NCBI GenBank assembly: GCA_020002185.1
Contig: CM034544.1
Location: 4,524,632-4,588,631 of the forward strand
Source of the DNA: Paraescarpia echinospica
Lineage: Eukaryota; Annelida; Polychaeta; Sabellida; Siboglinidae
Direction: 5' to 3'
DNA length: 64,000 bases
Positions 26,320-50,950 of the stretch are shown in pieces. Below the pieces are notes generated by a model. The model searched no databases, was not told the origin of the DNA, and was given only the letters and a program-made list of their open reading frames with translations. The position numbers and the translations under genes are program-made. The first letter of the stretch is position 1, and each line of letters begins with the position of its first letter.

Positions 26320-29300
26320 GCGTATTCCCACATTATTGAACAACTTTACTTGCTTATGCCCATCGTCCCTCTTGGGATATAGGCCGTCGACAACAGCTCT
26401 CCCAGAGTCATCTGTCCTGGGGCCGCACTTCTCGCCATCTGTTTCCAGGTGTGTATATATAGCTTCGATCATCTGCTTAGTGTACGAGATCTCTTCGCCA
26501 AGTGTTTTTCGGTCGGCCTCTTTTTATCTGGATTCCATGTCAGCACTTGTCGGGTGATGCTTGAGCCTGGTTTCCGGAGTGTGTGGCTAATCCACCCACA
26601 TGTTCTTCTTCTGATCTTTTCCTCGGCTGGGAGTTGGTGTGTCCTCCTCCACAAGTCGACGTTGCTGATCGTGTCTGGCCAGCGGATCTGGAGGATTCTT
26701 CTTATACCGTTGTTGATGCAGGTATGCACTCTGTTGATGGTGGTGTTGGTTGCCCTCCACGTCTCGGCTCCATACAATAAGATTGACTTCACATTTGGGT
26801 TAAACAGCCGGATTTTTGTGTGTAATGACAGCACTTTGGAGCTCTAGATGTTCTTTAGCTGTAGAAATGTTACTCTCGCCTTGCCAAACCTTGCTATTAT
26901 GTTTGCGTCTGTGCCGTCCTGTTTATCGATGACATTGCCCAAGTAGGTGAAGGCATCTACCTCTTCAACTGCATTCCTTCCAGCGTGACTGGGTCAGTGC
27001 TAGCTGTGTTAACATTGAGGACATCCGTCTTTGTTTTATGTATGCCAAGTCCCACTTGTGAGGAAATTACTGCCAGTTCTGTTGTCTTGTCCTGCTTCTG
27101 CTGGTGGCTGTAGGACAGCAGTGTCAGATCATCGACGAAGTCTAGGTCTTCTAGTTGTGTCTACAGTGTCCATTGGATTCAATTCCTCATCGGCATTGTG
27201 CACTTCATCATAATCCAATCACTGGACAGGAGGAAGTGGTATGCGGACAGCAGGCAGCTTTGTTTAACTCAAGTCTTCTCTTATAAACGACTCGTGAGCT
27301 GTCCTGCGTGGATTACTCTGCACCCCGTTCCCTCATAGATGTTCGTGATCAGGTTTACCCGTTTGTTTGGCACTCCATAATGTCGTAGTGGTTTCCCGAT
27401 GATCTCCCTGTCTACACTGACGAATGCCTTTTCGTAGTCGACGAAGCTGATGTAGAGAGAGGAGCTCTACTCCAAAGATTGCTTTACTATGATGCGCAGT
27501 GTTGCGATCTGATCCACGCATGATCTGTTCTGACGGACTCCAGCTTGCTGATCTCTCAGCAGTGGGTCAACTGTGTCTTTCATCCTTTTAAAATGATCCT
27601 GTTGAAAACTTTCCCTGGCACTGACAGAAGTGTGATTCCTCTGTAGTTGGAACAGTTGCTGAGGTCTCCTTTCTTGGGAAGTTTTATGAGGTATCCCTCT
27701 CTCCAGTCTGATGGCACTACTTCCTCTTCCCCGATCTTTTCAAAGAGGGGGTACTGTTGTTCCACAGATTTATTTACATCTGTCTTGAGTGCTTCTGGCG
27801 GACTATCGTCTGGTCTCTTTACTTTGTAGATCGTCAGCTGTTTTATGACCTTCCTGATTTCTTCCTTGGTATGCTTGTCACAGTTGATGGGTAGGTGTTT
27901 CAGCTGGCTGAATGTCAGAGAAGGTGTTCGGTGGGGCAGATCTGTTCAGAAGTTCTTCAAAATGTTCAACCCATCTGTTCAGCTGTTGCACAGTTCCTGG
28001 GATGACCCCTCCCTCCTAGTCTTTGACGGGTCTTTCTGGCTTGCTGTACTTGCCTGATAGTTTCCCGGTGGTGTCATACAGCTGTCTCGTGTTTCCACTA
28101 CATGCCGCTTGCTCTGCCTCTTCAGCCAGGCTGTCAATGTAGTTTATCAATTCAGCCTGATATGATTTGTGATTTGTGAGATGATTAACTTTTGTAACAT
28201 ATTTAACTTACTTAACATATTTAATTTATTTAATTTATTTAACTTATTTAACTGATATAACTCTTATTACTATTTTTATATTTTTATATTGCATGTACAT
28301 TTGTTTTATTTGTTTTAATATGCTGCCACGATCCAAATGTATTTCCCTCCCAAGGGACAATAAAGTATTGTGATTGTGATTGATTGTCTGTTTTTACACT
28401 CTTCTTTACTTCTCTGTTCCTTTGCCTTAGCCTTCGGCGCTGTTGTGCGACTGTTGTTTACTGCTGTTTTCTTCTCATTCCGCATTTTGATCCTGTGCAA
28501 AGTTTCTGCTGATGTCCACTCTCTTTGCTGCTGGCCAACAACTTCTTGGCAAGTTGATGTCAGTGTCTCTTCGATGTTCTGCCACAGGCTGTTCAGTTCG
28601 AGTTCTTCTTCTTGTAGCTCTTGTAGCACTTGGAATTTGTTAGCAAGGTTCAGCTTGTATTCCTCTCTTGTCAGTGGATCTTTCAGGAGGCCGACATTGT
28701 ACTTTCGTCTCTTTGTTGCTGTCTCCATCCAACATTCTTTAGGTTGTGTTTCAGTCTAGCAACCAACAGGTGATGGTCGGATGCAACGTCAGCTCCCCTC
28801 ATCGCTTTCACATCTTGAAGTGACCACTTGAATCTCTTGCCTATACACATGTGATCCAGTTAGTTTTCTGCCACGTGATCTGGTGACATCCACGTAGCCT
28901 TGTGTATCCTCTTGTGTGGGAAAATGCTGCCCCGATGACAATCTTGTTCAGGGCACACGTGTCCGCAAATCTATCTCCATTCTCGTTCATCTCTCCAGGT
29001 CCAAGGGTCCCCATTACTTCTTTATACCCCGTTCTGTCCATTCCAATCTTCGCATTGCAATCTCCCATGAGAATGTTGACATCTTTCTCTGGGCACTTGT
29101 CGAGGATGCTGTTATATAATTGGTCCTTCGTTTCTTCATCTCTATCGTGCGTTGGTGTGTAGCACTGGATCACATTCATCTTGATTTTCTGTTTCTTTGT
29201 TCTGAAGGATGCTGTGCAGTACCCTCTGTGTCAATCTTGATAGCCCGAGTGCTACGCCTTCAGAGTGAAGTGCATTATGGGGCAGTGCAAGGTTGTAGTT

Positions 29301-30248: not shown

Positions 30249-31472
30249 GGTTTTGCTGGACACAGTCCAGGACGACAACACGTGGCAGAGGGAAACGTAG
30301 GCCCAGCACTAGGATCTGTGGAGCCGTCATGTACACAGGGACGTCCTGGCCTTGACTTCGATGACAGTGTGGACTGACTTAACGACATCGCGTATAGTTA
30401 TAACTATCTAATTTTACTATAATCGAACTAGCGTGCCTGTCATTGCGTGAGTGCGTGTGTGTGTGCGCGCGCGTGTGCATGTATATGTGGATATGTAAAC
30501 TTTTTCTTTTTAGACGGTTTACATTTCGGGCGTCAAAGTTTCAGGGATCAACGACACTTCGGAAGACACGTAATTCGCTGTTATATATTTTCTCGAAATT
30601 TAATTAATTCACCGTATATTTGAGGGTTCTTACAAGGTTCGTACTGGACGTTAGTCGATCGTTCACAACGTTATGCGTGGTTTGTGCGATTGTTCCGAGC
30701 AACGTAAACCGTTCACCGATCACTTGGGGGCGGTTTACGTAACTTGCAACAATCGTAGAAAACACGCGGAGCGTTGCCTAAATCTGCTCAAAGTTACGTC
30801 AGCTGTGTTTTAATATGCCACGTAAATGACGTTAACTTTGCAGCTTGTATCTCTTCTTATGCGCCGAGTTTCAGTTACCTCGTTCTAAACTGATTCGGTT
30901 CCATTGATAATTATTGGCATGTGTTCATTGGCAGTGTTTTAGAACAAATCCAGGTAGATGTTTTTATTTTCTTACTTGACAGTCATTCCCCAGATGGCGC
31001 CACGTGAGTTATGTGTGAACATTATCTTCTGCACGGCGACAATTGCAGCTCTTGGATTGTTGCTCCACGGATGACTGTATGCTGGTTGTTAAGTCACATC
31101 AGAATTCTTCGGGAAAGCGTCTTCTGCGTCTCGTGTGTGTGTGTGGGTGCGCGAATGCGTGCCATTGTGGTTGTGTGTGTGCGTGTGCATATACATGTAC
31201 AATTATGTGGGTACGTGTGGAGAGAGGATGGGCAAGAGTTCTGCTTGAGAAAAAAGTCGATTTGCAGTGTCATGTGGAGTGCAGCTGGATACTTTTGGGA
31301 GCCTCAAGAGGGGTGCGTGCGGTTGGTGGTTTTGGTAGCCCAATAGTGTGCAGTTGGAGGTCTCAAAGGGGGTTCATTCGGCGGTTTTTGGGGTGCCTCA
31401 AAGTGGACTGCAGTGGGAGGTTTCCGAGAGCCGAAAAACTCACCCCAATAATCAACGACGTCACGGGCCTGA

Positions 31473-31594
<122 letters not shown>

Positions 31595-31950
31595 CATGCT
31601 GTGTGTTTGTGTATGCATGCATGAATGTGTGTATTCTGAAAGTTTATCAACCGGCTAAACGCATTTGTAATTGAAATGTTGACGTGTGTATAAAACAGCT
31701 ATCTTTTATAAACATTTCCTTTGTCAAATCTTGGCATCTGTACATACCATTAAACTACGTCAAACCTGAAAAATATATGTTGCAGACAAAAGATAAGACT
31801 TCCCTCGACATAACTAAATCAAGAGATTATAACATGTGGTAGGGTTCAACTGATAACTGTGTTCCAAGTTTCAACGTTGTAAGCCACTGTACAAACAGCA
31901 CACAATGTCTACACAAGCGGAACTCATCAACAACAAACTATCGAATATAC

Positions 31951-33779
31951 CCAATAACACCAACGGCTAGAGCAAGCGTCTGATCCTTCAATATGTTTCT
32001 ACTGATGCTCCATGATCCATCAGTGGCAACGACTGTGACATTCTGATCCTTCAAGATGTTTCTACTGATGCTCCATGATCCATCAGCGGCAACGACTGTG
32101 ACATTCTGATCATTCAAGATGGTTCTACTGATGCTCCATGATCCATCAGCGGCAACAATTGTGACATTCTGATCCTTCAAGATGTTTCTACTGATGCTCC
32201 ATGATCCATCAGCGGCAACGATTGTCACATTCTGATCCTTCAAGATGTTTCTACTGATGCTCCATGATCCATCAGCGGCAACGACTGTGACATTCTGATC
32301 CTTCAAGATGTTTCTACGGATGCTCCATGATCCATCAGTGGCAATAATTGTCACATTCTGATTCTTCAAGATGTTTCTACTGATGCTCCATGATCCATCA
32401 GCGGCAACAATTGTGACATTCTGATCCTTCAAGATGTTTCTACTGATGCTCCATGATCCACCAGCGGCAACAATTGTCACATTCTGATCCTTCAAGATGT
32501 TTCTACTGATGCTCCATAAACCATCAGTGGCAACAATTGTCACATTCTGATTCTTCAAGATGTTTCTACGGATGCTCCATGATCCACCAGCGGCAACAAT
32601 TGTGACATTCTGAACCTTCAAGATGTTTCTACTGATGCTCCATGATCCATCAGCGGCAACAATTGTGACATTCTGATCCTTCAAGATGTTTCTACTGATG
32701 CTCCATGATCCATCAGCGGCAACGATTGTCACATTCTGATCCTTCAAGATGTTTCTACTGATGCTCCATGATCCATCAGCGGCAACGACTGTGACATTCT
32801 GATCCTTCAAGATGTTTCTACGGATGCTCCATGATCCATCAGTGGCAATAATTGTCACATTCTGATTCTTCAAGATGTTTCTACTGATGCTCCATGATCC
32901 ATCAGCGGCAACAATTGTCACATTCTGATCCTTCAAGATGTTTCTACTGATGCTCCATAAACCATCAGTGGCAACAATTGTCACATTCTGATTCTTCAAG
33001 ATGTTTCTACGGATGCTCCATGATCCACCAGCGCCAACAATTGTGACATTCTGAACCTTCAAGATGTTTCTACTGATGCTCCATGATCCATCAGCGGCAA
33101 CAATTGTGACATTCTGATCCTTCAAGATGTTTCTACGGATGCTCCATGATCCATCAGTGGCATCAATTGTGACATTCTGATCCTTCAAGATGTTTCTACT
33201 GATGCTCCATGATCCATCAGTGGCAACAATTGTGACATTCTGATCCTTCAAGATGTTTCTAAGGATGCTCCATGATCCATCAGTGGCATCAATTGTCACA
33301 TTCTGATTCTTCAAGATGTTTCTACTGATGCTCCATGATCCACCAGCGGCAACAATTGTGACATTCTGATCCTTCAAGATGTTTCTACGGATGCTCCATG
33401 ATCCATCAGTGGCAATAATTGTCACATTCTGATTCTTCAAGATGTTTCTACTGATGCTCCATGATCCATCAGCGGCAACAATTGTGACATTCTGATCCTT
33501 CAAGATGTTTCTACTGATGCTCCATGATCCACCAGCGGCAACAATTGTCACATTCTGATCCTTCAAAATGTTTCTACTGATGCTCAATGATCCATCAGTG
33601 GCAACAATTGTCACATTCTGATTCTTCAAGATGTTTCTACGGATGCTCCATGATCCACCAGCGGCAACAATTGTGACATTCTGATCCTTCAAGATGTTTC
33701 TACTGATGCTCCATGATCCATCAGCGGCAACAATTGTGACATTCGAGAGGTCGTTCTTTTCCAGAGTTGTTCTCAGTAC
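31951..33779 (-). CDS. Galc: Galc exon C expanded by a 21-residue coding repeat
   Basis: Acceptor TCGATCTAG preceded by a pyrimidine-rich stretch; predicted donor ATTGG|GTATAT (weak). 1,829 nt. Removing 27 of the 28 repeats leaves 128 nt, close to the 131 nt of the matching 44-residue vertebrate segment. The unique start is VLRTTLEKNDLS and the unique end TLALAVGVI. If the weak donor is not used, the frame ends six codons later (...GYIR, stop at 31,938-31,940). There is no stop or frameshift in any repeat. There is no ATG, as expected for an internal exon. Confidence 0.8.
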
Positions 33780-36700
33780 CTAGATCGACGAAGACAGGGT
33801 ATGCAAGAATACAGAGACACAAGAATATTAAAAAATACTATCTGAGTATTACCGGCTTACCCATTCTATGAATTTATCCATTTTCCACAGATTTTAGTGC
33901 CAAAAATATTATGAGGGTGGATTTGAATTGACTTGGAAGAATTCTGAATACACGATTACTATAAGTCTATATACTGAATGCACAAGAAAGGCTCGCATTA
34001 GAATGGCTATTTCTACAGTGTCATTACAGCTTAAATGTTTTTACCTCCAATGAAAATTATAAAGAGGCTAAACAAAAATGATATACAAACACCTACTTAC
34101 CTTGATGTATGTAGGAGTATACGCCCTCTCATTACAGATCTACAAATTATATGTTCACAATATCAGGATATGAAAACACAGTGTTAAATGTTTCTCCCTT
34201 TTGGTAGAAAAATCAACACATTTAATTCATGCAATCCTAAAGACATGACTGCCATGATAAATTACGATACGATATTTGGGTGTTTTTTTTTCTAAAAGCT
34301 TGTTAGCCATCAACATTTGATATTTTATATCCAACCAGGGCTTGAAATTTATCAAATTATCTACTTGTCCAGTGGACGAGTAGAACCAAAAGTTCACTTG
34401 TCCGTACAACAATTCACTTGTCCTAAAAACAACTAACTTTCAAAAGCTACTTCTCCGTAATTAATTTGTTTTTTCTATTTTAAATCATTACTGTAGCACT
34501 ATTTGCCATCGGCAGCCAATGTACACTAGTGTTCCCAGTCACATACAGTATTTACAGTTGAATAGTGTGTGCTGATAACCAATGTACACTAGTGTTCCCA
34601 GTCACATACAGTATTTACAGTTGGATAGTGAGTGCTGATAACCAATGTACACTAGTGTACCCAGTCACATACAGTATTTACAGTTGGATAGTGTGTGCTG
34701 ATAACCAATGTACACTAGTGTTCCCAGTCACATACAGTATTTACAGTTGGATAGTGTGTGCTGATAACCAATGTACACTAGTGTACCCAGTCACATACAG
34801 TATTTACAGTTGGATAGTGTGTGCTGATAACCAATGTACACTAGTGTTCCCAGTCACATACAGTATTTACAGTTGGATAGTGAGTGCTGATAACCAATGT
34901 ACACTAGTGTACCCAGTCACATACAGTATTTACAGTTGGATAGTGTGTGCTGATAACCAATGTACACTAGTGTTCCCAGTCACATACAGTATTTACAGTT
35001 GGATAGTGTGTGCTGATAACCAATGTACACTAGTGTACCCAGTCACATACAGTATTTACAGTTGGATAGTGAGTGCTGATAACCAATGTACACTAGTGTA
35101 CCCAGTCACATACAGTATTTACAGTTGGATAGTGTGTGCTGATAACCAATGTACACTAGTGTTCCCAGTCACATACAGTATTTACAGTTGGATAGTGTGT
35201 GCTGATAACCAATGTACACTAGTGTACCCAGTCACATACAGTATTTACAGTTGGATAGTGTGTGCTGATAACCAATGTACACTAGTGTTCCCAGTCACAT
35301 ACAATATTTACAGTTGGATAGTGTGTGCTGATAACCAATGTACACTAGTGTACCCAGTCACATACAGTATTTACAGTTGGATAGTGTGTGCTGATAACCA
35401 ATGTACACTAGTGTTCCCAGTCACATACAATATTTACAGTTGGATAGTGTGTGCTGATAACGCTATCAAAGGCAATGCATGCTACACTTTTATGTTTAGC
35501 AGAGACGAACAATGCTGCTCTGTGCCCTATTATGATTAAATTATGACATATTTGAAGTTCCAGTGTGTTTTTACTAGAAGCAGCACAGGGAGATGGCTAT
35601 ATTTAGGTTTTTTTTTAATACAAGTCTTCACCTTAATTGGGTGTTTAGACCATGATGGCGCTGGAACACATGTAGATGGAGACATGGAATAGCTGCTGGG
35701 AAAACAAACAATAAACACTTATTGTGTTGAACTGTCACTAATTGTATACTTTGATTTCACATGTTTTTAGGCAAAACAACATATTTTATGAAAATAATAT
35801 CATGGTTACGTTTGAAAGCACCTGTTAAGTTTGTCTAGAATAGGCAGATACATCAGTCATGCAACACGAACATCCAAGGTCTCTCAAAGTTTAATATATT
35901 GTTATTTTCAATTGTTTGACTAAGATAAAGGTGGCTCTTAATTGGAGTCTCCGTGACCATTTATTTTTGTTTATATGTTGATTGTATTATATTTATTTAA
36001 ACAAAATAAATGAGTCTAAGTCTGGTGCAAATGACTCGTCACCTTTCAGCAAAATGGACACTGAATTGTACAAACAACCCCCATTCCCAGTACAGTACTT
36101 TTCCGGGCAATGCAATCCCCCAGGGCATTGCCAGGTGGAATCAGTAGAGTTGAAAACTCATCTTCTCTTATTTGAAATGGAATGACTAATAGAAAATGCA
36201 TCTTGCAAAACAGTTATTTTTTAAATGTGGTTGTATTTTATCCATTCTGAGGACACATTGATATTATTTTGGTATGGATGTGGTGGCTCGAAATTGCAAT
36301 TCTGAAAATAACAAATATATCAAGTTGCAAAATGCATTTGCTTTATAATGTTATTGCGGGCAACCACGAATGATGATGGCCATGCACATACCACTTATTA
36401 CAGTGAAATTAGTGGCGCTGTAGCATAACATACTACAGTTGTTAAATAATGCAGTTCCAGCCCTTAAATGCACATATCTGGAAATAGAAGTTCACTGTGT
36501 AAGGGAATAGTCTGCTCTATTCTAACAACAATGTGTAATATTGTATTTAAATGACCCAAACTAGGTTCATCCGAATGACTCTACGTTCCAAACCTATGCT
36601 TCAACCCAGGGGATTACCTACCAGGCAGATGCTGCTAATAATGTAGACCAATTAAGTAAAAGATCGCCAAAATATGAATCTAAGCGTTATGAATATTTGC

Positions 36701-38232
36701 GAATGGATGGGTGCAAAATTACTAGACTGTTACTCATCTGAAACATTTGGAAGAAAGATAAATGTGGAAATACTTATATTAGGTAATTAAGGTGTTGTAA
36801 GTTGTATTCAGCACAAATTTTCAACAAACTACCAAAACACATATTTGGTGCTAAAATAATTGATGTTTCGGAGGAGAATATTTACTTACACAGCGAACTT
36901 TCATTTCTAGACATGCGCATTAATGGCTGGAACTGCATTATTTTATAACAGCAGTATTTTATGCTACAGCGTTAGGGCTTCAGTTGCTCATCTGTCCGCT
37001 ACGCGTGGGGTAGTTGCCGATCTGTCTACTAGGCCCTTGGCGGACTTTCTATGAACTACAAGTAGTGCTACGGCAATTCGCAAACTTCTGCGCGAACAAT
37101 TTAAAACCACCGTTTATTATCGCCAAATGACATTCGTTGACCGGCACTGTTTTGCTGTCATGTACCGTTATCATGATCAATGTGCTAATCTGTTCATGGG
37201 ACTTCGATGCTGAAATGTTGTGCCCCAAAACGGGCCGTTTACCTACCGCGTACCGGTGACGGCGTTATTCTTTAACAAGCACCATAGCCAGGTAAATCAC
37301 CCGAGTCCTGCTCTTGACAAAAACCCTGATTAGATTCTTATAAAATGAATGCTATTTTATTCAAGCAAATTCACCCAATAACTAAATAAAAGGCAAACAG
37401 AAATTTTCGTATGTTTCAAAGTCTACAGACAACACGCCATAGACAAAGTCCACTAACGCAGGCCGATTCAGCGGCAGAGGGTGGCACCTCATCATGCCGA
37501 CTATGACTTTCATTTTCAAAATGGCAGACGGTGTCGGCTGTATTTCTTGCGGTTTATTTTGTGTTTACCGTCATTAGAGAACAACATTTACTGAAGAAAT
37601 TTACTGTATGATATATGTTTTAGAGAACGGACGACTTAGTACTAATGTTGTAGTTGTCCTGACTGTAAATGGCTAGGTTGTCCCACGGAAAAGAAGTAGT
37701 AGCAATTTCATTTGTCCAGCAGCAAATCCAGTTACCTCGGGCTAATAGACAAGCGAAATTTCGAGCCTTGCCTAGTTCCCTACACATATGTACTTCAAAT
37801 TAATATGTTTTATAATAATATTATTAGGGCATGGATAGTTGTCTTAAAATAAAATGTATCGCTATTAGGGCATGAACAGTTGTCCTAAAATACAGTTTTT
37901 ATATTAGCCTTCTGGGTAATTTATTTATTATTTGTTTAGTTACATAAACAGTCCAAAAAATGTTTACTATGCATATTATATGAACTTGATATTACATGTT
38001 TAATGACATTGGAACAATTACAACAAATCCTGATCTATTTAACATTCCTTGAGGTATCGTTTTGTTACAAATATCCACCATTTTAATCAATGTTGTTAAT
38101 CTGTCTACCTGAATGGCCTTGTCAACAAATGCCTGTGAAAAGTGTTTATGTTCGTGCACCTACCCCAATGTAGTCAATGTGCAGGCCGTAGTACTTCCGT
38201 GCCCCTACCACCCATTGTACAACATAGTCAAT
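31951..38232 (-). CDS. Galc: Galactocerebrosidase (GALC, GH59) gene fragment, three exons
   Basis: Three minus-strand exons (38,164-38,232; 34,101-34,139; 31,951-33,779) join in phase to the middle of the catalytic TIM barrel of galactocerebrosidase, the lysosomal enzyme that removes galactose from galactosylceramide. Matches: VVGARKYYGLHIDYIG (family IVGAKRYHDLDIDYIG), ICNERAYTPTYIK (IWNERSYNANYIK, which holds the acid/base Glu of NER) and VLRTTLEKNDLSNVTIVAAD...VGVIG ([20 protein letters not shown]...VDVIG). Odd points: Cys replaces the conserved Trp before NER, the third exon is expanded by 28 in-frame repeats, and no further exons are found on the left before Fmr1. N-terminal exons may lie to the right or outside the window. 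All frames and most splice sites are intact, so either a diverged gene or a recent partial copy. Confidence 0.82.
31980..33743 (-). repeat. 63-bp coding minisatellite, 28 copies, inside Galc exon C
   Basis: 1,764 bp = 28 x 63. Each unit encodes NVTIVAADGSWSISRNILKD plus Q with recurring substitutions (A/T, D/G, S/R, D/N, I/V). Each unit carries an N-V-T glycosylation sequon. Marker units with VQ in place of DQ recur 441 bp (7 units) apart and are followed by the same variant series, showing block duplication. Confidence 0.96.
34101..34139 (-). CDS. Galc: Galc exon B (acid/base Glu)
   Basis: 39-nt exon, acceptor TTTGTAG, donor AAG|GTAAGT. It encodes ICNERAYTPTYIK. The NER glutamate expected to act as general acid/base is present, but the Trp of WNER is Cys here (TGT). 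Phase 0, 321-bp intron to the next exon. Confidence 0.85.
34336..37770. mobile_element. Candidate hAT-like TIR element carrying a minisatellite
   Basis: Left end CAGGGCTTGAAATTT and right end (inverted) CAAGGCTCGAAATTT, with repeated TTGTCC/GGACAA motifs just inside both ends. 3,435 bp, no transposase. The 8-bp flanks (TATCCAAC, CCTAGTTC) do not match, so the two ends could belong to separate insertions. Confidence 0.45.
34516..35461. repeat. 63-bp tandem repeat, about 15 copies, dimeric
   Basis: Unit with GATAACCAATGTACACTAGTG and CCAGTCACATACAGTATTTA. GTGTTCCC and GTGTACCC types alternate almost strictly, giving a 126-bp dimer. The plus-strand open frame through it has no homology and I read it as an artefact of a period divisible by 3. 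Confidence 0.95.
38164..38232 (-). CDS. Galc: Galc exon A (barrel strand preceding the acid/base)
   Basis: 69 nt, acceptor CTATTAG, donor GGG|GTAGGT. It encodes IDYVVQWVVGARKYYGLHID plus YIG, matching the YVVTW...DYIG segment of vertebrate GALC. Phase 0 at both ends. Confidence 0.85.
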
Positions 38233-38331
38233 CTAATAGTGAAATTTTATTGTTTAATGAAGCAACACACAACCTTTGGCACATCTATCTGTACCACATC
38301 CCCTGAAGATATATTGTGACACGGTAAGCAT

Positions 38332-38735
38332 TTGTTTAAAGGGGCCCAAATTAAGGGGGTGAAAACTTATCATGAGTCTCAAATCATGAGTCTCAAATCC
38401 AAGCTCAGACTCATGCGTGCCCTGGTCATCTCCATCTACCTGTACGCATGCGAGACATGGACACTAACAGCGAAGCTTGAGAGGAGAATACAAGCTATGG
38501 AAATTAGGTGCTTCCGAAAGATCTTGGGCATCAGCAACACTGACCATGTCACCAACGCGACCGTGCGCCAGATGATTGAAGCACACACAGGGCCTTACGA
38601 GGAACAGCTGACAACAGTGAGAAAAAGGAAAGTCCAGTGGTACGGCCATGTAACAAGACCGGGTGGCCTAGCAAAGACCTTCTCCAGGGCACGGTGGAAG
38701 GAAAAAGAAGACTACAGAGGCTACTTCCCAAGCAG
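38332..38735 (+). mobile_element. LINE reverse-transcriptase C-terminal fragment
   Basis: Plus-strand frame with LKSKLRLMRALVISIYLYAC, ETWTLTAKLERRIQAMEIRC, FRKILGISNTDHVTNATVRQ and KRKVQWYGHVTR, the post-RT domain typical of non-LTR elements. A frameshift follows at about 38,680, after which the GLAKDLLQGTVEGKRR tail appears in another frame. 5' truncated. Confidence 0.85.
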
Positions 38736-39650
38736 ATTTGCTTTCGTATTAATGTCTTGTTTGTTTGCACCGTCTATGTTCATTGTGTATTTGGTATACG
38801 TTTTTATCAGAAAGCGCCAAAATTATATATCAAATGAAAGCTAATAAAACTACATTTGCAACTATGTGACATTTTTAGGTGTAGGTATATATTAATTTTA
38901 CAATACAATTTTTATTTTTATAAATGTTTGAGTTCATACAAACTTAAGATACTTACATACACAGTCAAATTCAATGTCATTATGACAATTATTAATACAT
39001 TTTGATCGCTGGTATCAGTTACTGAAATCTTAAGATTTAAGTCCTGATTCCGTTGGTACAAAAATGTGATTGTATAAATCGGCCGCACGTGGACGTATAA
39101 GCTTTTGATCGCCATTGAATACCAAAATCGTAAACGTTTCTAACCGCAAAAACGTCGACCATCCTTCCTCTGTGTCCGTGAAAACCGTCGAAATAACCGC
39201 CTCCAACGGACGCTCAGTATTTAAATTCAAGTACATGTCGCATCCATCTCATAAACATCGTTACCAACATGTACTTGACTTCGATCGAATGAAAACAACC
39301 GCTGAATTACAGTCCAAAACATCGTCCAAATCATCAGAAAACGCATGAACATCTCTTCCACCACGCACGACATCAATGGCGTCGGCCGCTTTGCGCCAAA
39401 AATGAAACTTAGCCGTGTATTTATTCATTTATAATTCTCAAAATCACCGTCGACACTTTCCAATGACCAGCGCATATAAAACGGAAGTGTCCCGGCCAAG
39501 TACATATACACACATTTTGTGACGTCATAGGAATATGTGTACGTTGTCTTGAGGTTATTCAATAGGCCTACACAACTACGTGGAAAGTCGTAGTTGCGAT
39601 AGAAAGAGTTAATGTATATTTCATATCGATTAAACTCTTATATCAGGGTC
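38736..39650. other. Spacer
   Basis: AT-rich DNA with no recognised gene or repeat. Confidence 0.5.
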
Positions 39651-45034: not shown

Positions 45035-48000
45035 CAACCTTACCGTAACACTAAACACCTCAACATAACATATTCCAGTCTGCACTCCAATGGAACCTTA
45101 CCGTAACACTAAACACCTAAACATAACATATTCCAGTCTGCACTCCAATGGAAACTTACCGTAATTTTAAACACCTAAACATAACATATTCCAGTCTGCA
45201 CTCCAATGGAACCTTACCGTAACACTAAACACCTAAACATAACATATTCCAGTCTGCACTCCAATGGAACCTTACCGTAACATTAAACACCTAAACATAA
45301 CATATTCCAGTCTGCACTCCAATGGAACCTTACCGTAACACTAAACACCTAAACATAACATATTCCAGTCTGCACTCCAATGGAACTTTACCGTAACACT
45401 AAACACCTAAACATAACATATTCCAGTCTGCACTCCAATGGAACCTTACCGTAACATTAAACACCTAGACATAACATATTCCAGCCTACACTCCAATGGA
45501 ACCTTACCGTAACCCAAAACATCTAAACATAACATATTCCAGTCTGCACTCCAGTGGAACCTTACCGTAACACTAAACACCTAAACATAATATATTCCAG
45601 TCTGCACTCCAGTGGAACCTTACCGTAACACTAAACACCTAAACATAACATATTCCAGTCTGCACTCCAATGGAACCTTACCGTAACATTAAACACCTAG
45701 ACATAACGTATTCCAGCCTACACTCCAATGGAACCTTACCGTAACCCTAAACATCTAAACATAACATATTCCAGTCTGCACTCCAGTGGAACCTTACCGT
45801 AACACTAAACACCTAAACATAATATATTCCAGTCTGCACTCCTATGGAACCTTACCGTAACATTAAACACCTAAACATAACATATTCCAGTCTGCACTCC
45901 AATGGAACCTTACCGTAACACTAAACACCTAAACATAACATATTCCAGTCTGCACTCCAATGGAACCTTACCGTAACATTAAACACCTAAACATAACATA
46001 TTCCATTCTGCACTCCAATGGAACCTTACCGTAACACTAAACACCTAAACATAACATATTCAAGTCTGCATTCCAATGGAACCTTACCGTAACAATAAAC
46101 ACCTAAACATTACATATTCCAGTCCGCACTCCAATGGAACCTTACCGTAACACTAAACACCTAAACATAACATATTCCTGTCTGCACTCCAATGGAACCT
46201 TACCGTAACACTAAACACCTAAACATAACATATTCCAGTCTGCACTCCAATGGAATCTTACCGTAACATTAAACACCTAGACATAACATATTCCAGCCTA
46301 CACTCCAATGGAACCTTACCGTAACCCTAAACACCTAAACATAACACATTCCAGTCTGCACTCCAGTGGAACCTTACCGTAACACTAAACACCTAAACAT
46401 AATATATTCCAGTCTGCACTCCAATGGAACCTTACCGTAACATTAAACACCTAAACATAACATATTCCAGTCTGCACTCCAATGGAACCTTACCGTAACA
46501 CTAAACACCTAAACATAACATATTCCAGTCTGCACTCCAATGGAACCTTACCGTAACATTAAAAACCTAAACATAACATATTCCAGTCTGCACTCCAATG
46601 GAACCTTACCGTAACACTAAACACCTAAACATTACATATTCCAGTTCGCACTCCAATGGAACCTTACCGTAACACTAAACACCTAAACATAACATATTCC
46701 TGTCTGCACTCCAATGGAACCATACCGTAACACTAAACACCTAAACATAACATATTCCTGTCTGCACTCCAATGGAACCTTACCGTAACACTAAACACCT
46801 AAACATAACATATCCAAGTCTGCACTCCAATGGAACCTTACCGTAACATTAAACACCTAAACATAACATATTCCAGTCTGCACTCCAATGGAACCTTACC
46901 GTAACACTAAACACCTAAACATAACATATTCCAGTCTGCACTCCAATGGAACTTTACCGTAACACTAAACACCTAAACGTAACATATTCCAGTCTGCACT
47001 CCAATGGAACCTTACCGTAACACTAAACACATCAACATAACATATTCCAGTCTGCACTCCAATGGAACCTTACCGTAACATTAAACACCTAAACATAACA
47101 TATTCCAGTCTGCACTCCAATGGAACCTTACCGTAACACTAAACACCTAAACATAACATATTCCAGTCTGCACTCCAATGGAACTTTACCGTAACACTAA
47201 ACACCTAAATGTAACATATTCCAGTCTGCACTCCAATGGAACCTTACCGTAACACTAAACACATCAACATAACATATTCCAGTCTGCACTCCAATGGAAC
47301 CTTACCGTAACATTAAACACCTAAACATAACATATTCCAGTCTGCACTCCAGTGGAACCTTACCGTAACACTAAACACCTAAACATAACATATTCCAGTC
47401 TGCACTCCAATGGAACATTACCGTAACATTAAACACCTAGACATAACATATTCCAGCCTACACTCCAATGGAACCTTACCGTAACACTAAACATCTAAAC
47501 ATAACATATTCCAGTCTGCACTCCAGTGGAACCTTACCGTAACACTAAACACCTAAACATAATATATTCCAGTCTGCACTCCAATGGAACCTTACCGTAA
47601 CATTAAACACCTAAACATAACATATTCCAGTCTGCACTCCAATGGAACCTTACCGTAACACTAAACACCTAAACATAACATATTCCAGTCTGCACTCCAA
47701 TGGAACCTTACCGTAACATTAAAAACCTAAACATAACATATTCCAGTCTGCACTCCAGTGGAACCTTACCGTAACACTAAACACCTAAACATAATATATT
47801 CCAGTCTGCACTCCAATGGAACCTTACCGTAACATTAAACACCTAAACATAACATATTCCAGTCTGCACTCCAATGGAACCTTACCGTAACACTAAACAC
47901 CTAAACATAACATATTCCAGTCTGCACTCCAGTGGAACCTTACCGTAACACTAAACACCTAAACATAACATATTCCAGTCTGCACTCCAATGGAACCTTA

Positions 48001-50950
48001 CCGTAACATTAAACACCTAAACATAACATATTCCAGTCTGCACTCCAATGGAACCTTACCGTAACACTAAACACCTAAACATAACATATTCAAGTCTGCA
48101 CTCCAATGGAATCTTACCGTAACACTAAACACCTAAACATTACATATTCCAGTCCGCACTCCAATGGAACCTTACCGTAACACTAAACACCTAAACATAA
48201 CATATTCCTGTCTGCACTCCAATGGAACCTTACCGTAACTCTAAACACCTAAACATAACATATTCCAGTCTGCACTCCAATGGAATCTTACCGTAACATT
48301 AAACACCTAGACATAACATATTCCAGCCTACACTCCAATGGAACCTTACCGTAACCCTAAACACCTCAACATAACACATTCCAGTCTGCACTCCAGTGGA
48401 ACCTTACCGTAACACTAAACACCTAAAAATATTATATTCCAGTCTGCACTCCAATGGAACCTTACCGTAACATTAAACACCTAAACATAACATATTCCAG
48501 TCTGCACTCCAATGGAACCTTACCGTAACAGTAAACACCTAAACATAACATATTCCAGTCTGCACTCCAATGGAACCTTACCGTAACATTAAACACCTAA
48601 ACATAACATATTCCAGTCTGCACTCCAATGGAACCTTACCGTAACACTAAACACCTAAACATAACATATTCAAGTCTGCACTCCAATGGAACCTTACCGT
48701 AACACTAAACACCTAAACATTACATATTCCAGTCCGCACTTCAATGGAACCTTACCGTAACACTAAACACCTAAACATAACATATTCCTGTCTGCACTCC
48801 AATGGAACCTTACCGTAACACTAAACACCTAAACATAACATATTCCTGTCTCCACTCCAATGGAACCTTACCGTAACACTAAACACCTAAACATAACATA
48901 TTCCAGTCTGCACTCCAATGGAACCTTACCGTAACATTAAACACCTAAACATAACATATTCCAGTCTGCACTCCAATGGAACCTTACCATAACACTAAAC
49001 ACCTAAACATAACATATTCCAGTCTGCACTCCAATGGAACTTTACCGTAACACTAAACACCTAATCGTAACATATTCCAGACTGCACTCCAATGGAACCA
49101 TACCGTAACACTAAACACATAAACATAACATATTCCAGTCTGCACTCCAATGGAACCTTACCGTAACATTAAACACCTAAACATAACATATTCCAGTCTG
49201 CACTCCAGTGGAACCTTACCGTAAAACTAAACACCTAAACATAACATATTCCAGTCTGCACTCCAATGGAACCTTACCGTAACATTAAACACCTAAACAT
49301 AACATATTCCAGTCTGCACTCCAATGGAACCTTACCGTAACACTAAACACCTAAACATAACATATTCCAGTCTGCACTCCAATGGAAACTTACCGTAACA
49401 TTAAACACCTAAACATAACATATTCCAGTCTGCACTCCAATGGAACCTTACCGTAACACTAAACACCTAAACATAACATATTCAAGTCTGCACTCCAATG
49501 GAACCTTACCGTAACACTAAACACCTAAACATTACATATTCCAGTCCGCACTTCAATGGAACCTTACCGTAACACTAAACACCTAAACATAACATATTCC
49601 TGTCTGCACTCCAATGGAACCTTACCGTAACACTAAACACCTAAACATAACATATTCCTGTCTGCACTCCAATGGAACCTTACCGTAACACTAAACACCT
49701 AAACATAACATATTCCAGTCTGCACTCCAATGGAACCATACCGTAACATTAAACACCTAAACATAACATATTCCAGTCTGCACTCCAATGGAACCTTACC
49801 ATAACACTAAACACCTAAACATAACATATTCCAGTCTGCACTCCAATGGAACTTTACCGTAACACTAAACACCTAAACGTAACATATTCCAGTCTGCACT
49901 CCAATGGAACCTTACCGTAACACTAAACACATAAACATAACATATTCCAGTCTGCACTCCAATGGAAACTTACCGTAACATTAAACACCTAAACATAACA
50001 TATTCCAGTCTGCACTCCAGTGGAACCTTACCGTAACACTAAACACCTAAACATAACATATTCCAGTCTGCACTCCAATGGAACCTTACCGTAACATTAA
50101 ACACCTAGACATAACATATTCCAGCCTACACTCCAATGGAACCTTACCGTAACCCTAAACATCTAAACATAACATATTCCAGTCTGCACTCCAGTGGAAC
50201 CTTACCGTAACACTAAACACCTAAACATAATATATTCCAGTCTGCACTCCAATGGAACCTTACCGTAACATTAAACACCTAAACATAACATATTCCAGTC
50301 TGCACTCCAATGGAACCTTACCGTAACACTAAACACCTAAACATAACATATTCCAGTCTGCACTCCAGTGGAACCTTACCGTAACACTAAACACCTAAAC
50401 ATAACATATTCCAGTCTGCACTCCAATGGAACCTTACCGTAACACTAAACACCTAAACACAACATATTCCAGTCTGCACTCCAGTGGAACCTTACCGTAA
50501 CATTAAACACCTAAACATAACATATTCCAGTCTGCACTCCAGTGGAACCTTACCGTAACACTAAACACATAAACATAACATATTCCAGTCTGCACTCCAA
50601 TGGAACCTTACCGTAACACTAAACACCTAAACATAAAATATTCCAGTCTGCACTCCAATGGAACCTTACCGTAACATTAAACACCTAAACATAACATATT
50701 CCAGTCTGCACTCCAATGGAACCTTACCGTAACACTAAACACCTAAACATAACATATTCCAGTCTGCACTCCAATGGAACCTTACCGTAACACTAAACAC
50801 CTAAACATAACATATTCCAGTCTGCACTCCAATGGAACCTTACCGTAACACTAAACACCTAAACATAACATATTCCAGTCTGCACTCCAGTGGAACTTTA
50901 CCGTAACACTAAACACCTAAACATAACACATTCCAGTCTGCACTCCAATA
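45035..50950. repeat. 58-bp satellite array, about 102 copies (5.9 kb)
   Basis: Unit with TTACCGTAACACTAAACACC and ATAACATATTCCAGTCTGCA. Mostly alternating AACACT/AACATT types. A marker series (CCAGCCTACACTCC, then CCCTAAACATCT, then CTCCAGTGG, then AATATATTCC) recurs at about 45,484, 45,714, 46,294, 47,454, 48,324 and 50,124, spaced by near whole numbers of units. Another marker, CAGTCCGCACT or CAGTTCGCACT, recurs at about 46,120, 46,640, 48,150, 48,740 and 49,550. No stable open frame. Confidence 0.98.

What the first reader, a model, noticed from the sequence alone, without database searches (positions are those of the whole stretch)
31951..33779. A galactocerebrosidase exon expanded about 14-fold by an in-frame 63-bp repeat
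The exon corresponds to a 43-44-residue segment of the GALC catalytic barrel. Here 21 of those residues are repeated 28 times (1,764 bp = 28 x 63), with unique GALC-like sequence on both sides and no stop or frameshift. The exon would add 567 residues inside a TIM barrel, just after the acid/base Glu. Each repeat also adds an N-V-T glycosylation sequon. Either a remarkable coding minisatellite is tolerated or spliced away, or this is a dying copy with homogenised repeats.
Basis: partly seen in the sequence, partly recalled or inferred. Interest (0 to 1): 0.9.

Follow-up and report, generated by a model that had tools for sequence, protein, structure and literature searches.

The report
Dead gene exon turned minisatellite
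A 63-base piece of a galactocerebrosidase exon is repeated 28 times without a stop codon, but most of the gene was not found around it and the repeats vary as unselected DNA would, so this is likely a minisatellite born in a dead gene fragment rather than a giant new enzyme exon.

Summary
In detail: on the minus strand, a GALC (GH59) exon at 31951-33779 is 1,829 nt instead of 128 nt, because 63 bp is repeated 28 times (31980-33743), open throughout, with splice-like ends. The functional reading fails. The window holds three exons (4 truncated, 5 with Trp-to-Cys, 6 with the array) of a duplicate of a fuller GALC gene on contig C4, where the unit is single copy. No nucleophile exon or other GALC exon was found in 144 kb around it. 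A second duplicate on C12 carries the same array (93 full units, one split by an LTR insertion, one of 61 bp), with stops and frameshifts. The 28 units hold 5 silent, 16 replacement and 0 stop variants; neutral expectation is about 5, 15 and 1. Open frames are usual for sampled arrays of period divisible by 3 (14 of 18). AlphaFold's confident beta-solenoid is no evidence: a nearby intron array gives one too. Verdict: an exon-derived minisatellite in an unprocessed pseudogene fragment, in a minisatellite-rich genome, probably a vestimentiferan tubeworm's. Unresolved: whether the array arose after duplication or sat in the ancestral gene and was lost from C4; true copy number; transcription.

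The parts
31951..33779 (-). GALC exon 6 (my numbering) with the array; 1,829 nt against 128 nt in the C4 gene; AG before 33779 and GT after 31951 kept
31980..33743 (-). 28 x 63-bp tandem array, consensus unit translates as NVTIVAADGSWSISRNILKDQ
34101..34139 (-). GALC exon 5 (acid/base Glu exon), reads ICNERAYTPTYIK; Trp of WNE is Cys; next bases GTAAGT
38161..38229 (-). 3' part of GALC exon 4 only (DYVVQWVVGARKYYGLHIDYIGV); DNA homology to C4 stops at 38229
31472..38229 (-). whole duplicated fragment, 81-89% identical in blocks to C4:8356423-8366654 (array units 89-95%), without a 6.3-kb insertion that C4 carries at 8359663-8365961
34516..35461 (.). second, unrelated 15 x 63-bp array in intron 4; single copy in the C4 and C12 copies

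Best explanation
This is a 28-copy minisatellite made from 63 bp of a GALC exon, lying in a three-exon fragment of a duplicated GALC gene that is likely dead. Shown: the unit is single copy in a fuller GALC gene on C4; only exons 4 (part), 5 and 6 of it were found in the window and 40 kb on either side; a second, clearly broken duplicate on C12 carries the same array in the same register. Inferred steps: (1) a GALC-a gene was copied, introns included, to other chromosomes; (2) in a copy freed from selection, one 63-bp stretch was duplicated in tandem, probably by slippage or end joining over a 2-bp microhomology (GA); (3) unequal exchange or slippage then multiplied and partly homogenised the units, copying blocks of three or more units; (4) because 63 is divisible by 3 and the founder unit had no stop, the frame stayed open by inheritance rather than by selection; (5) the two descendants drifted apart: 28 open units on C14; on C12 93 full units, 8 of them with a stop, plus a 2-bp deletion and an LTR-element insertion.
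For: C4a has the single-copy exon in a gene whose exons E1-E13 are open; E1-E8 joined score 328.5 bits to PF02057 and E1-E13 joined are 79% identical to a Ridgeia GALC over the whole query. Nucleophile-exon search of the genome: 6 places, none on C14 and none at the C12 50.1-Mb copy. Exon-4 search: 6 places, C14 only residues 35-58 of 58. Exon peptides E1-E13 against 144 kb of C14: GALC-like, collinear matches only for E4 part, E5 and E6. Unit variants in C14: 21 distinct, 5 silent / 16 replacement / 0 stop; expectation with kappa 2: 23.4% / 72.2% / 4.4%, i.e. 4.9 / 15.2 / 0.9. C12: 93 full units, 38 distinct variants, 8 / 28 / 2, 8 units with a stop, one 61-bp unit, frameshifts in exons 4 and 9. 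Same unit boundaries and one identical unit type in both arrays. 14 of 18 sampled arrays with period divisible by 3 have a frame open over 95% of their length (12 of 15 without the three pieces of this exon's arrays). In 335 kb sampled, 80.6 kb lies in arrays of period 10 or more.
Against: All 28 units are open and the splice-like ends of exons 5 and 6 are kept in C14, so a spliced transcript is not excluded. Zero stops against 0.9 expected is uninformative either way. Lineage-unique substitutions (C4a 54, C14 56, C12 103 in two aligned segments) fit, under a strict clock, C4a and C14 as sisters, which would put the array in the ancestor of all three and make the C4 single copy a contraction; the one informative amino acid (Ridgeia as outgroup) instead groups C12 with C14. 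Beyond the 40-kb flanks only exons 4, 6 and 7 were sought genome-wide on their own. No transcript data.
Confidence: 0.85

Rival explanations
1. The array arose in the working ancestral GALC-a gene, was tolerated or skipped there, passed to both duplicates, and was later lost from the C4 gene by contraction to one unit.
For: Both duplicates share the array with identical unit boundaries; substitution counts C4a 54, C14 56, C12 103 suggest under a clock that C12 split first.
Against: Ridgeia GALC has one unit; of 120 listed GALC proteins (5,142 hits in all) 107 could be measured, and these have 55-62 residues between the WNE and HYPG anchors; one outgroup-polarised residue groups C12 with C14; shared indels also join C12 and C14, though they cannot be polarised; a simple order (duplicate, expand, duplicate again) needs no contraction.
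Confidence: 0.12
2. The fragment is a live gene: the array exon is expressed, within a chimeric transcript, as a secreted repeat protein with many N-glycosylation sequons.
For: 613-aa open frame; exon-intron borders kept; AlphaFold2 gives a beta-solenoid, pLDDT 83.5, pTM 0.74.
Against: Neutral variant spectrum; no upstream or downstream GALC exon found; the protein search gave only 3 hits, two with PF00691 (OmpA-type, name recalled) and one without a domain (only 7,996 candidates scored); the opposite-strand frame of the nearby intron array also folds as a beta-solenoid, pLDDT 76.0, pTM 0.69, and AF2 is reported to do this with meaningless repeats (PMC11795689, abstract).
Confidence: 0.04
3. 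The copy number is an assembly artefact.
For: If the genome is Paraescarpia echinospica, it was assembled from R9.4 Nanopore plus Illumina reads with MaSuRCA (passages of PMC8476170), where array lengths can be wrong.
Against: The array has 18 distinct unit types in an ordered pattern, no N gap lies in the window (the only one in the 144 kb is at 73809-74808 in window numbering), and a second array of the same unit with different variants stands on another chromosome.
Confidence: 0.05

Closest known systems
Duplicated (unprocessed) pseudogene fragment
   Same: Introns kept, large parts missing, high identity to a parent gene
   Different: Frame and splice-like borders of the exons that remain are still open
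Minisatellites / VNTRs that grow from single-copy DNA (model of Haber and Louis, recalled, not read)
   Same: Unit single copy in the paralogue; array internally varied with repeated blocks of units
   Different: The founder DNA is a coding exon; microhomology at the boundary is only 2 bp (read by eye), too short to test the model
Coding minisatellites such as the Prdm9 zinc-finger exon (search listings only)
   Same: In-frame tandem units within an exon
   Different: No sign of selection on the units and no intact host gene here

Membership tests
GH59 galactocerebrosidase (functional enzyme) | Homology to GH59, directly or through the C4 paralogue | tested here: met
   Through C4a: E1-E8 joined 328.5 bits, single-copy exon 6 30.6 bits, cut-off 27. 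The window ORF alone scores 26.0 bits, just under the cut-off, and the profile search of the genome did not list it
GH59 galactocerebrosidase (functional enzyme) | Acid/base Glu exon (WNE) | tested here: met
   NE kept, but the preceding Trp is Cys in the window copy; role of the Glu recalled
GH59 galactocerebrosidase (functional enzyme) | Nucleophile exon (LWSSEDYST) | tested here: not met
   6 genomic places, none on C14; none in 144 kb; role recalled
GH59 galactocerebrosidase (functional enzyme) | Rest of the barrel and C-terminal domains | tested here: not met
   E1-E3 and E8-E13 not found in 144 kb of C14; C14 rows for these exons have E 0.04 or higher
Minisatellite | Head-to-tail array of a unit of some 10-100 bp | tested here: met
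   63 bp x 28
Minisatellite | Internal turnover by unequal exchange or slippage | tested here: met
   18 unit types; units 4-6 = 21-23 and 15-17 = 23-25
Minisatellite | Length polymorphism between individuals | not testable with these tools
   One assembly only
Unprocessed pseudogene | Introns retained, parts missing relative to a parent gene | tested here: met
Unprocessed pseudogene | No selection on the reading frame | tested here: met
   5/16/0 variants against 4.9/15.2/0.9; units only, small numbers
Coding minisatellite in an expressed gene | Array transcribed and translated | not testable with these tools
   No RNA data

The most novel reading that the evidence does not exclude
This genome turns exons into minisatellites as a matter of course: GALC alone gives three arrays made from exons whose single-copy form is known (exon 6 in two duplicates with 28 and about 95 units, exon 5 of the otherwise open C4b gene with 16 units of 43 bp), and the exon-6 array may even have lived inside the working ancestral gene before C4 contracted to one unit. 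Such loci would record minisatellite birth with the founder sequence known.
Probability: 0.25. Interest if true: 0.55.

Novelty: new member of a known kind. Interest (0 to 1): 0.35.

Why it matters
As a claim about an enzyme it does not matter: the copy is very probably dead. As a case of minisatellite birth it is useful, because the single-copy state, two descendant arrays and three further local births (intron 4 in C14, intron 3 in C4a, exon 5 in C4b) can be compared directly. It also warns that long open frames and confident AF2 beta-solenoids over in-frame repeats can be expected by default.

Tried and rejected
Array as functional barrel insertion: rejected on missing exons and neutral spectrum. 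Open frame as evidence of coding: rejected, 14 of 18 comparable arrays are open in some frame (12 of 15 without this exon's own arrays), including the intron array with its 34562-35539 frame on the opposite strand. AF2 solenoid: rejected after the control. Pfam hits PIGA, DUF7634, KPP10_Orf10, IL33_bt and others on the array ORF: rejected, each has 0 stretches passing alone, so they are sums over repeats. Period 63 as a sign of selection for frame: rejected, the non-coding intron array has the same period, and 18 of 42 arrays of period 20 or more and at least 5 copies have a period divisible by 3 (the sample is this window's neighbourhood and GALC loci, not random, and includes this exon's arrays). 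Processed retrocopy: rejected, introns are present. Organism: no tool names it; inferred from GALC and assembly size only. Rooting the three copies: not settled. Rfam: no hit in the window. First run of the outgroup table had one row shifted by a residue and was replaced. Two statements in my notebook are wrong and corrected here after a recount: exon 3 of the C12 copy is not frameshifted, and of its 94 units one is split by the LTR insertion; with that unit one search counted 44 variants (11/31/2), without it 38 (8/28/2). Papers: PMC9921365, PMC8476170 and PMC3449122 seen as passages, PMC11795689 as abstract and outline, others as listings only. The search for GALC with tandem repeats and exon listed 5 papers, none on this by title.

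Full report
What is there. On the minus strand 31951-33779 is an exon-like stretch of 1,829 nt, AG before it and GT after it, holding 28 gap-free copies of a 63-bp unit at 31980-33743. The frame is open for 613 aa.

What it comes from. The same genome (1.08 Gb in 3,111 contigs; the window is C14:4524632-4588631) has three GALC loci on contig C4 (a, b, c), in each of which peptides E1-E13 find a match. Locus C4a holds the single-copy form of this exon: 128 nt...NNLS-NVTIVAADGSWSISKNILKDK-TLAQAVGVIG. Window 31472-38229 is a duplicate of C4:8356423-8366654, with blocks 81-89% identical and array units 89-95%; C4a has a 6.3-kb insertion at 8359663-8365961 that C14 and C12 lack and whose ends have close relatives on C7 (three blocks at 94.8-97.6%). 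Exons 1-8 of C4a joined score 328.5 bits to PF02057 and match mouse GALC at E 1e-104; exons E1-E13 joined are 79% identical to a protein of Ridgeia piscesae over the whole query, the best of 5,142 hits (7,996 candidates scored).

What organism. Not named by any tool. The best GALC match is a vestimentiferan tubeworm, and the published Paraescarpia echinospica assembly (1,090.9 Mb, 14 pseudochromosomes; passages) is close to G000 in size. I infer a vestimentiferan, probably P. echinospica or a near relative.

What is missing. With exon peptides E1-E13 of C4a against 144 kb of C14 (window plus 40 kb on each side, 1 kb of N), the collinear GALC-like matches are the last 23 residues of exon 4, exon 5 and exon 6; the other C14 rows are weak (E 0.04 or higher) and out of context. 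Exon 5 reads ICNERAYTPTYIK, with Cys for the Trp of WNE. The nucleophile exon occurs at 6 genomic places, none on C14. The exon-4 query finds 6 places, C14 with residues 35-58 only. From what was found, no barrel can be made at this locus.

The second copy. Of 74 listed matches to the two-unit query, 72 lie on C14, C12 or C4a and two are weak (E 1.2 and 4.2). C12:50091592-50113346 is a fuller duplicate of C4a with frameshifts in exons 4 and 9 and no nucleophile exon at this place (another nucleophile-exon fragment lies 49 Mb away on C12). Its exon 3 is in frame. Its array has 21 full units, one unit split by an LTR insertion, 64 full units, a 61-bp unit and 8 full units; 8 of the 93 full units hold a stop. 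The insertion spans about 7.85 kb with terminal repeats of about 184 bp, 97.8% alike, and an inner pair of 160-bp repeats; three of its frames match reverse transcriptase, RNase H, aspartyl protease and, in two frames, integrase families, so it may be one element within another. Both arrays use the same unit limits and share one exact unit type, so by inference they descend from one tandem duplication or one array.

Selection. Relative to the C4a unit, the 28 C14 units show 21 distinct substitutions: 5 silent, 16 replacement, 0 stop. All single substitutions of the unit give 23.4% silent, 72.2% replacement and 4.4% stop with kappa 2, that is 4.9, 15.2 and 0.9. C12 without the split unit: 38 distinct, 8 silent, 28 replacement, 2 stop. 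Neither differs visibly from neutral. The numbers are small and each variant counts once. Three differences (positions 6, 44 and 61) are shared by both consensus units, and the Ridgeia protein has Gln at the last codon, so C4a's Lys there is probably the derived state and a few changes happened on the C4a side.

Is an open frame surprising? In 335 kb sampled (non-random: this neighbourhood and GALC loci), 122 arrays of period 10 or more cover 80.6 kb; of 42 with period 20 or more and at least 5 copies, 18 have a period divisible by 3. Of these 18, 14 are open over 95% of their length in at least one of six frames; without the three pieces of this exon's arrays it is 12 of 15. The neighbouring intron array (34516-35461, also 63 bp, 15 copies) lies in a 325-aa open frame on the opposite strand. 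So a 63-bp period and an open frame are ordinary here.

Would it fold? AlphaFold2 without an alignment gives a beta-solenoid for the 613-aa frame (pLDDT 83.5, pTM 0.74). The control, the 325-aa frame of the intron array, gives another (76.0, 0.69). PMC11795689 (abstract) reports that AF2 does this with random perfect repeats. The model says nothing about function.

How it grew. Read by eye, in C4a only two bases (GA) are repeated at both ends of the unit; for the 57-bp array in C4a intron 3, single in C12, it is three (TCT). These are too short to prove a mechanism; slippage or end joining followed by unequal exchange is inferred. Block copying is visible: C14 units 4-6 equal 21-23, and 15-17 equal 23-25. 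Within the GALC copies I count further local births: the intron-4 array in C14 (single in C4a and C12), the intron-3 array in C4a (single in C12), and the 16 x 43-bp array over exon 5 of C4b.

Order of events. Two aligned segments give lineage-unique substitutions of 19 + 35 (C4a), 20 + 36 (C14) and 34 + 69 (C12). Under a strict clock this favours C4a and C14 as sisters, and then the array would be older than all three copies and C4a would have contracted. Against that, of 15 variable residues with Ridgeia as outgroup, one is informative and groups C12 with C14, 5 are ambiguous and 9 are unique to one copy. Whole-segment identities with gaps counted give C12-C14 86%, C4a-C14 85%, C4a-C12 82%; the matching C14 query did not complete. 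Part of intron 4 is an interspersed repeat with dozens of genomic relatives, which weakens all these counts. I keep the contraction reading as the main rival.

Conservation of the site. Of 120 listed GALC proteins, 107 had both anchors (13 did not), and these have 55-62 residues between WNE and HYPG: none of the 107 carries such an insertion. The search with the array ORF gave 3 hits, two with PF00691, none GALC.

Verdict. The finding is a true and tidy observation with an ordinary cause: a minisatellite grown from an exon in an unprocessed GALC pseudogene fragment.

Noticed in passing
G000:C4:9714606-9715293 (L014): Exon 5 (acid/base Glu, VWNERPYDVKYIT) of GALC locus C4b is the head of a 16 x 43-bp array; many units end in a donor-like GTTAGT or GTGAGT across the junction, read by eye.
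   Followed up: partly
window 34516-35461: A second 63-bp array (15 copies) in intron 4 of the same fragment, single copy in C4a and C12, lying between the two ends of an interspersed repeat.
   Followed up: partly
window about 34336-37795: Interspersed repeat in GALC intron 4: its two ends match dozens of places genome-wide, at 8 or more of them as a same-strand pair with starts 1.5-2.8 kb apart, by eye (only the best 40 candidates scored in each).
   Followed up: partly
G000 C2:50996615, C3:44983418, C7:22653404 and 30119500, C8:35436843, C12:769964: Further scattered fragments of GALC-a (exon 4; exon 7; exon 1 with a stop and exon 7; intron 4; exon 7).
   Followed up: no
window 45036-50949: A 102-copy, 58-bp minisatellite nearly 6 kb long; the window has many further arrays.
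   Followed up: no
window 26469-29230 (-) and 38320-38844 (+): Broken frames that look like LINE reverse transcriptase remnants by eye; Pfam supports only DUF6451 at 26472-26843. The second lies next to the edge of the GALC fragment.
   Followed up: partly
G000:C1386 and C2375 (L026, L027): Small contigs repeating exon 8 (and, on C1386, later exons) of C4b at 96-100% amino-acid identity, with long 56/168-bp arrays; perhaps unplaced haplotype pieces.
   Followed up: no
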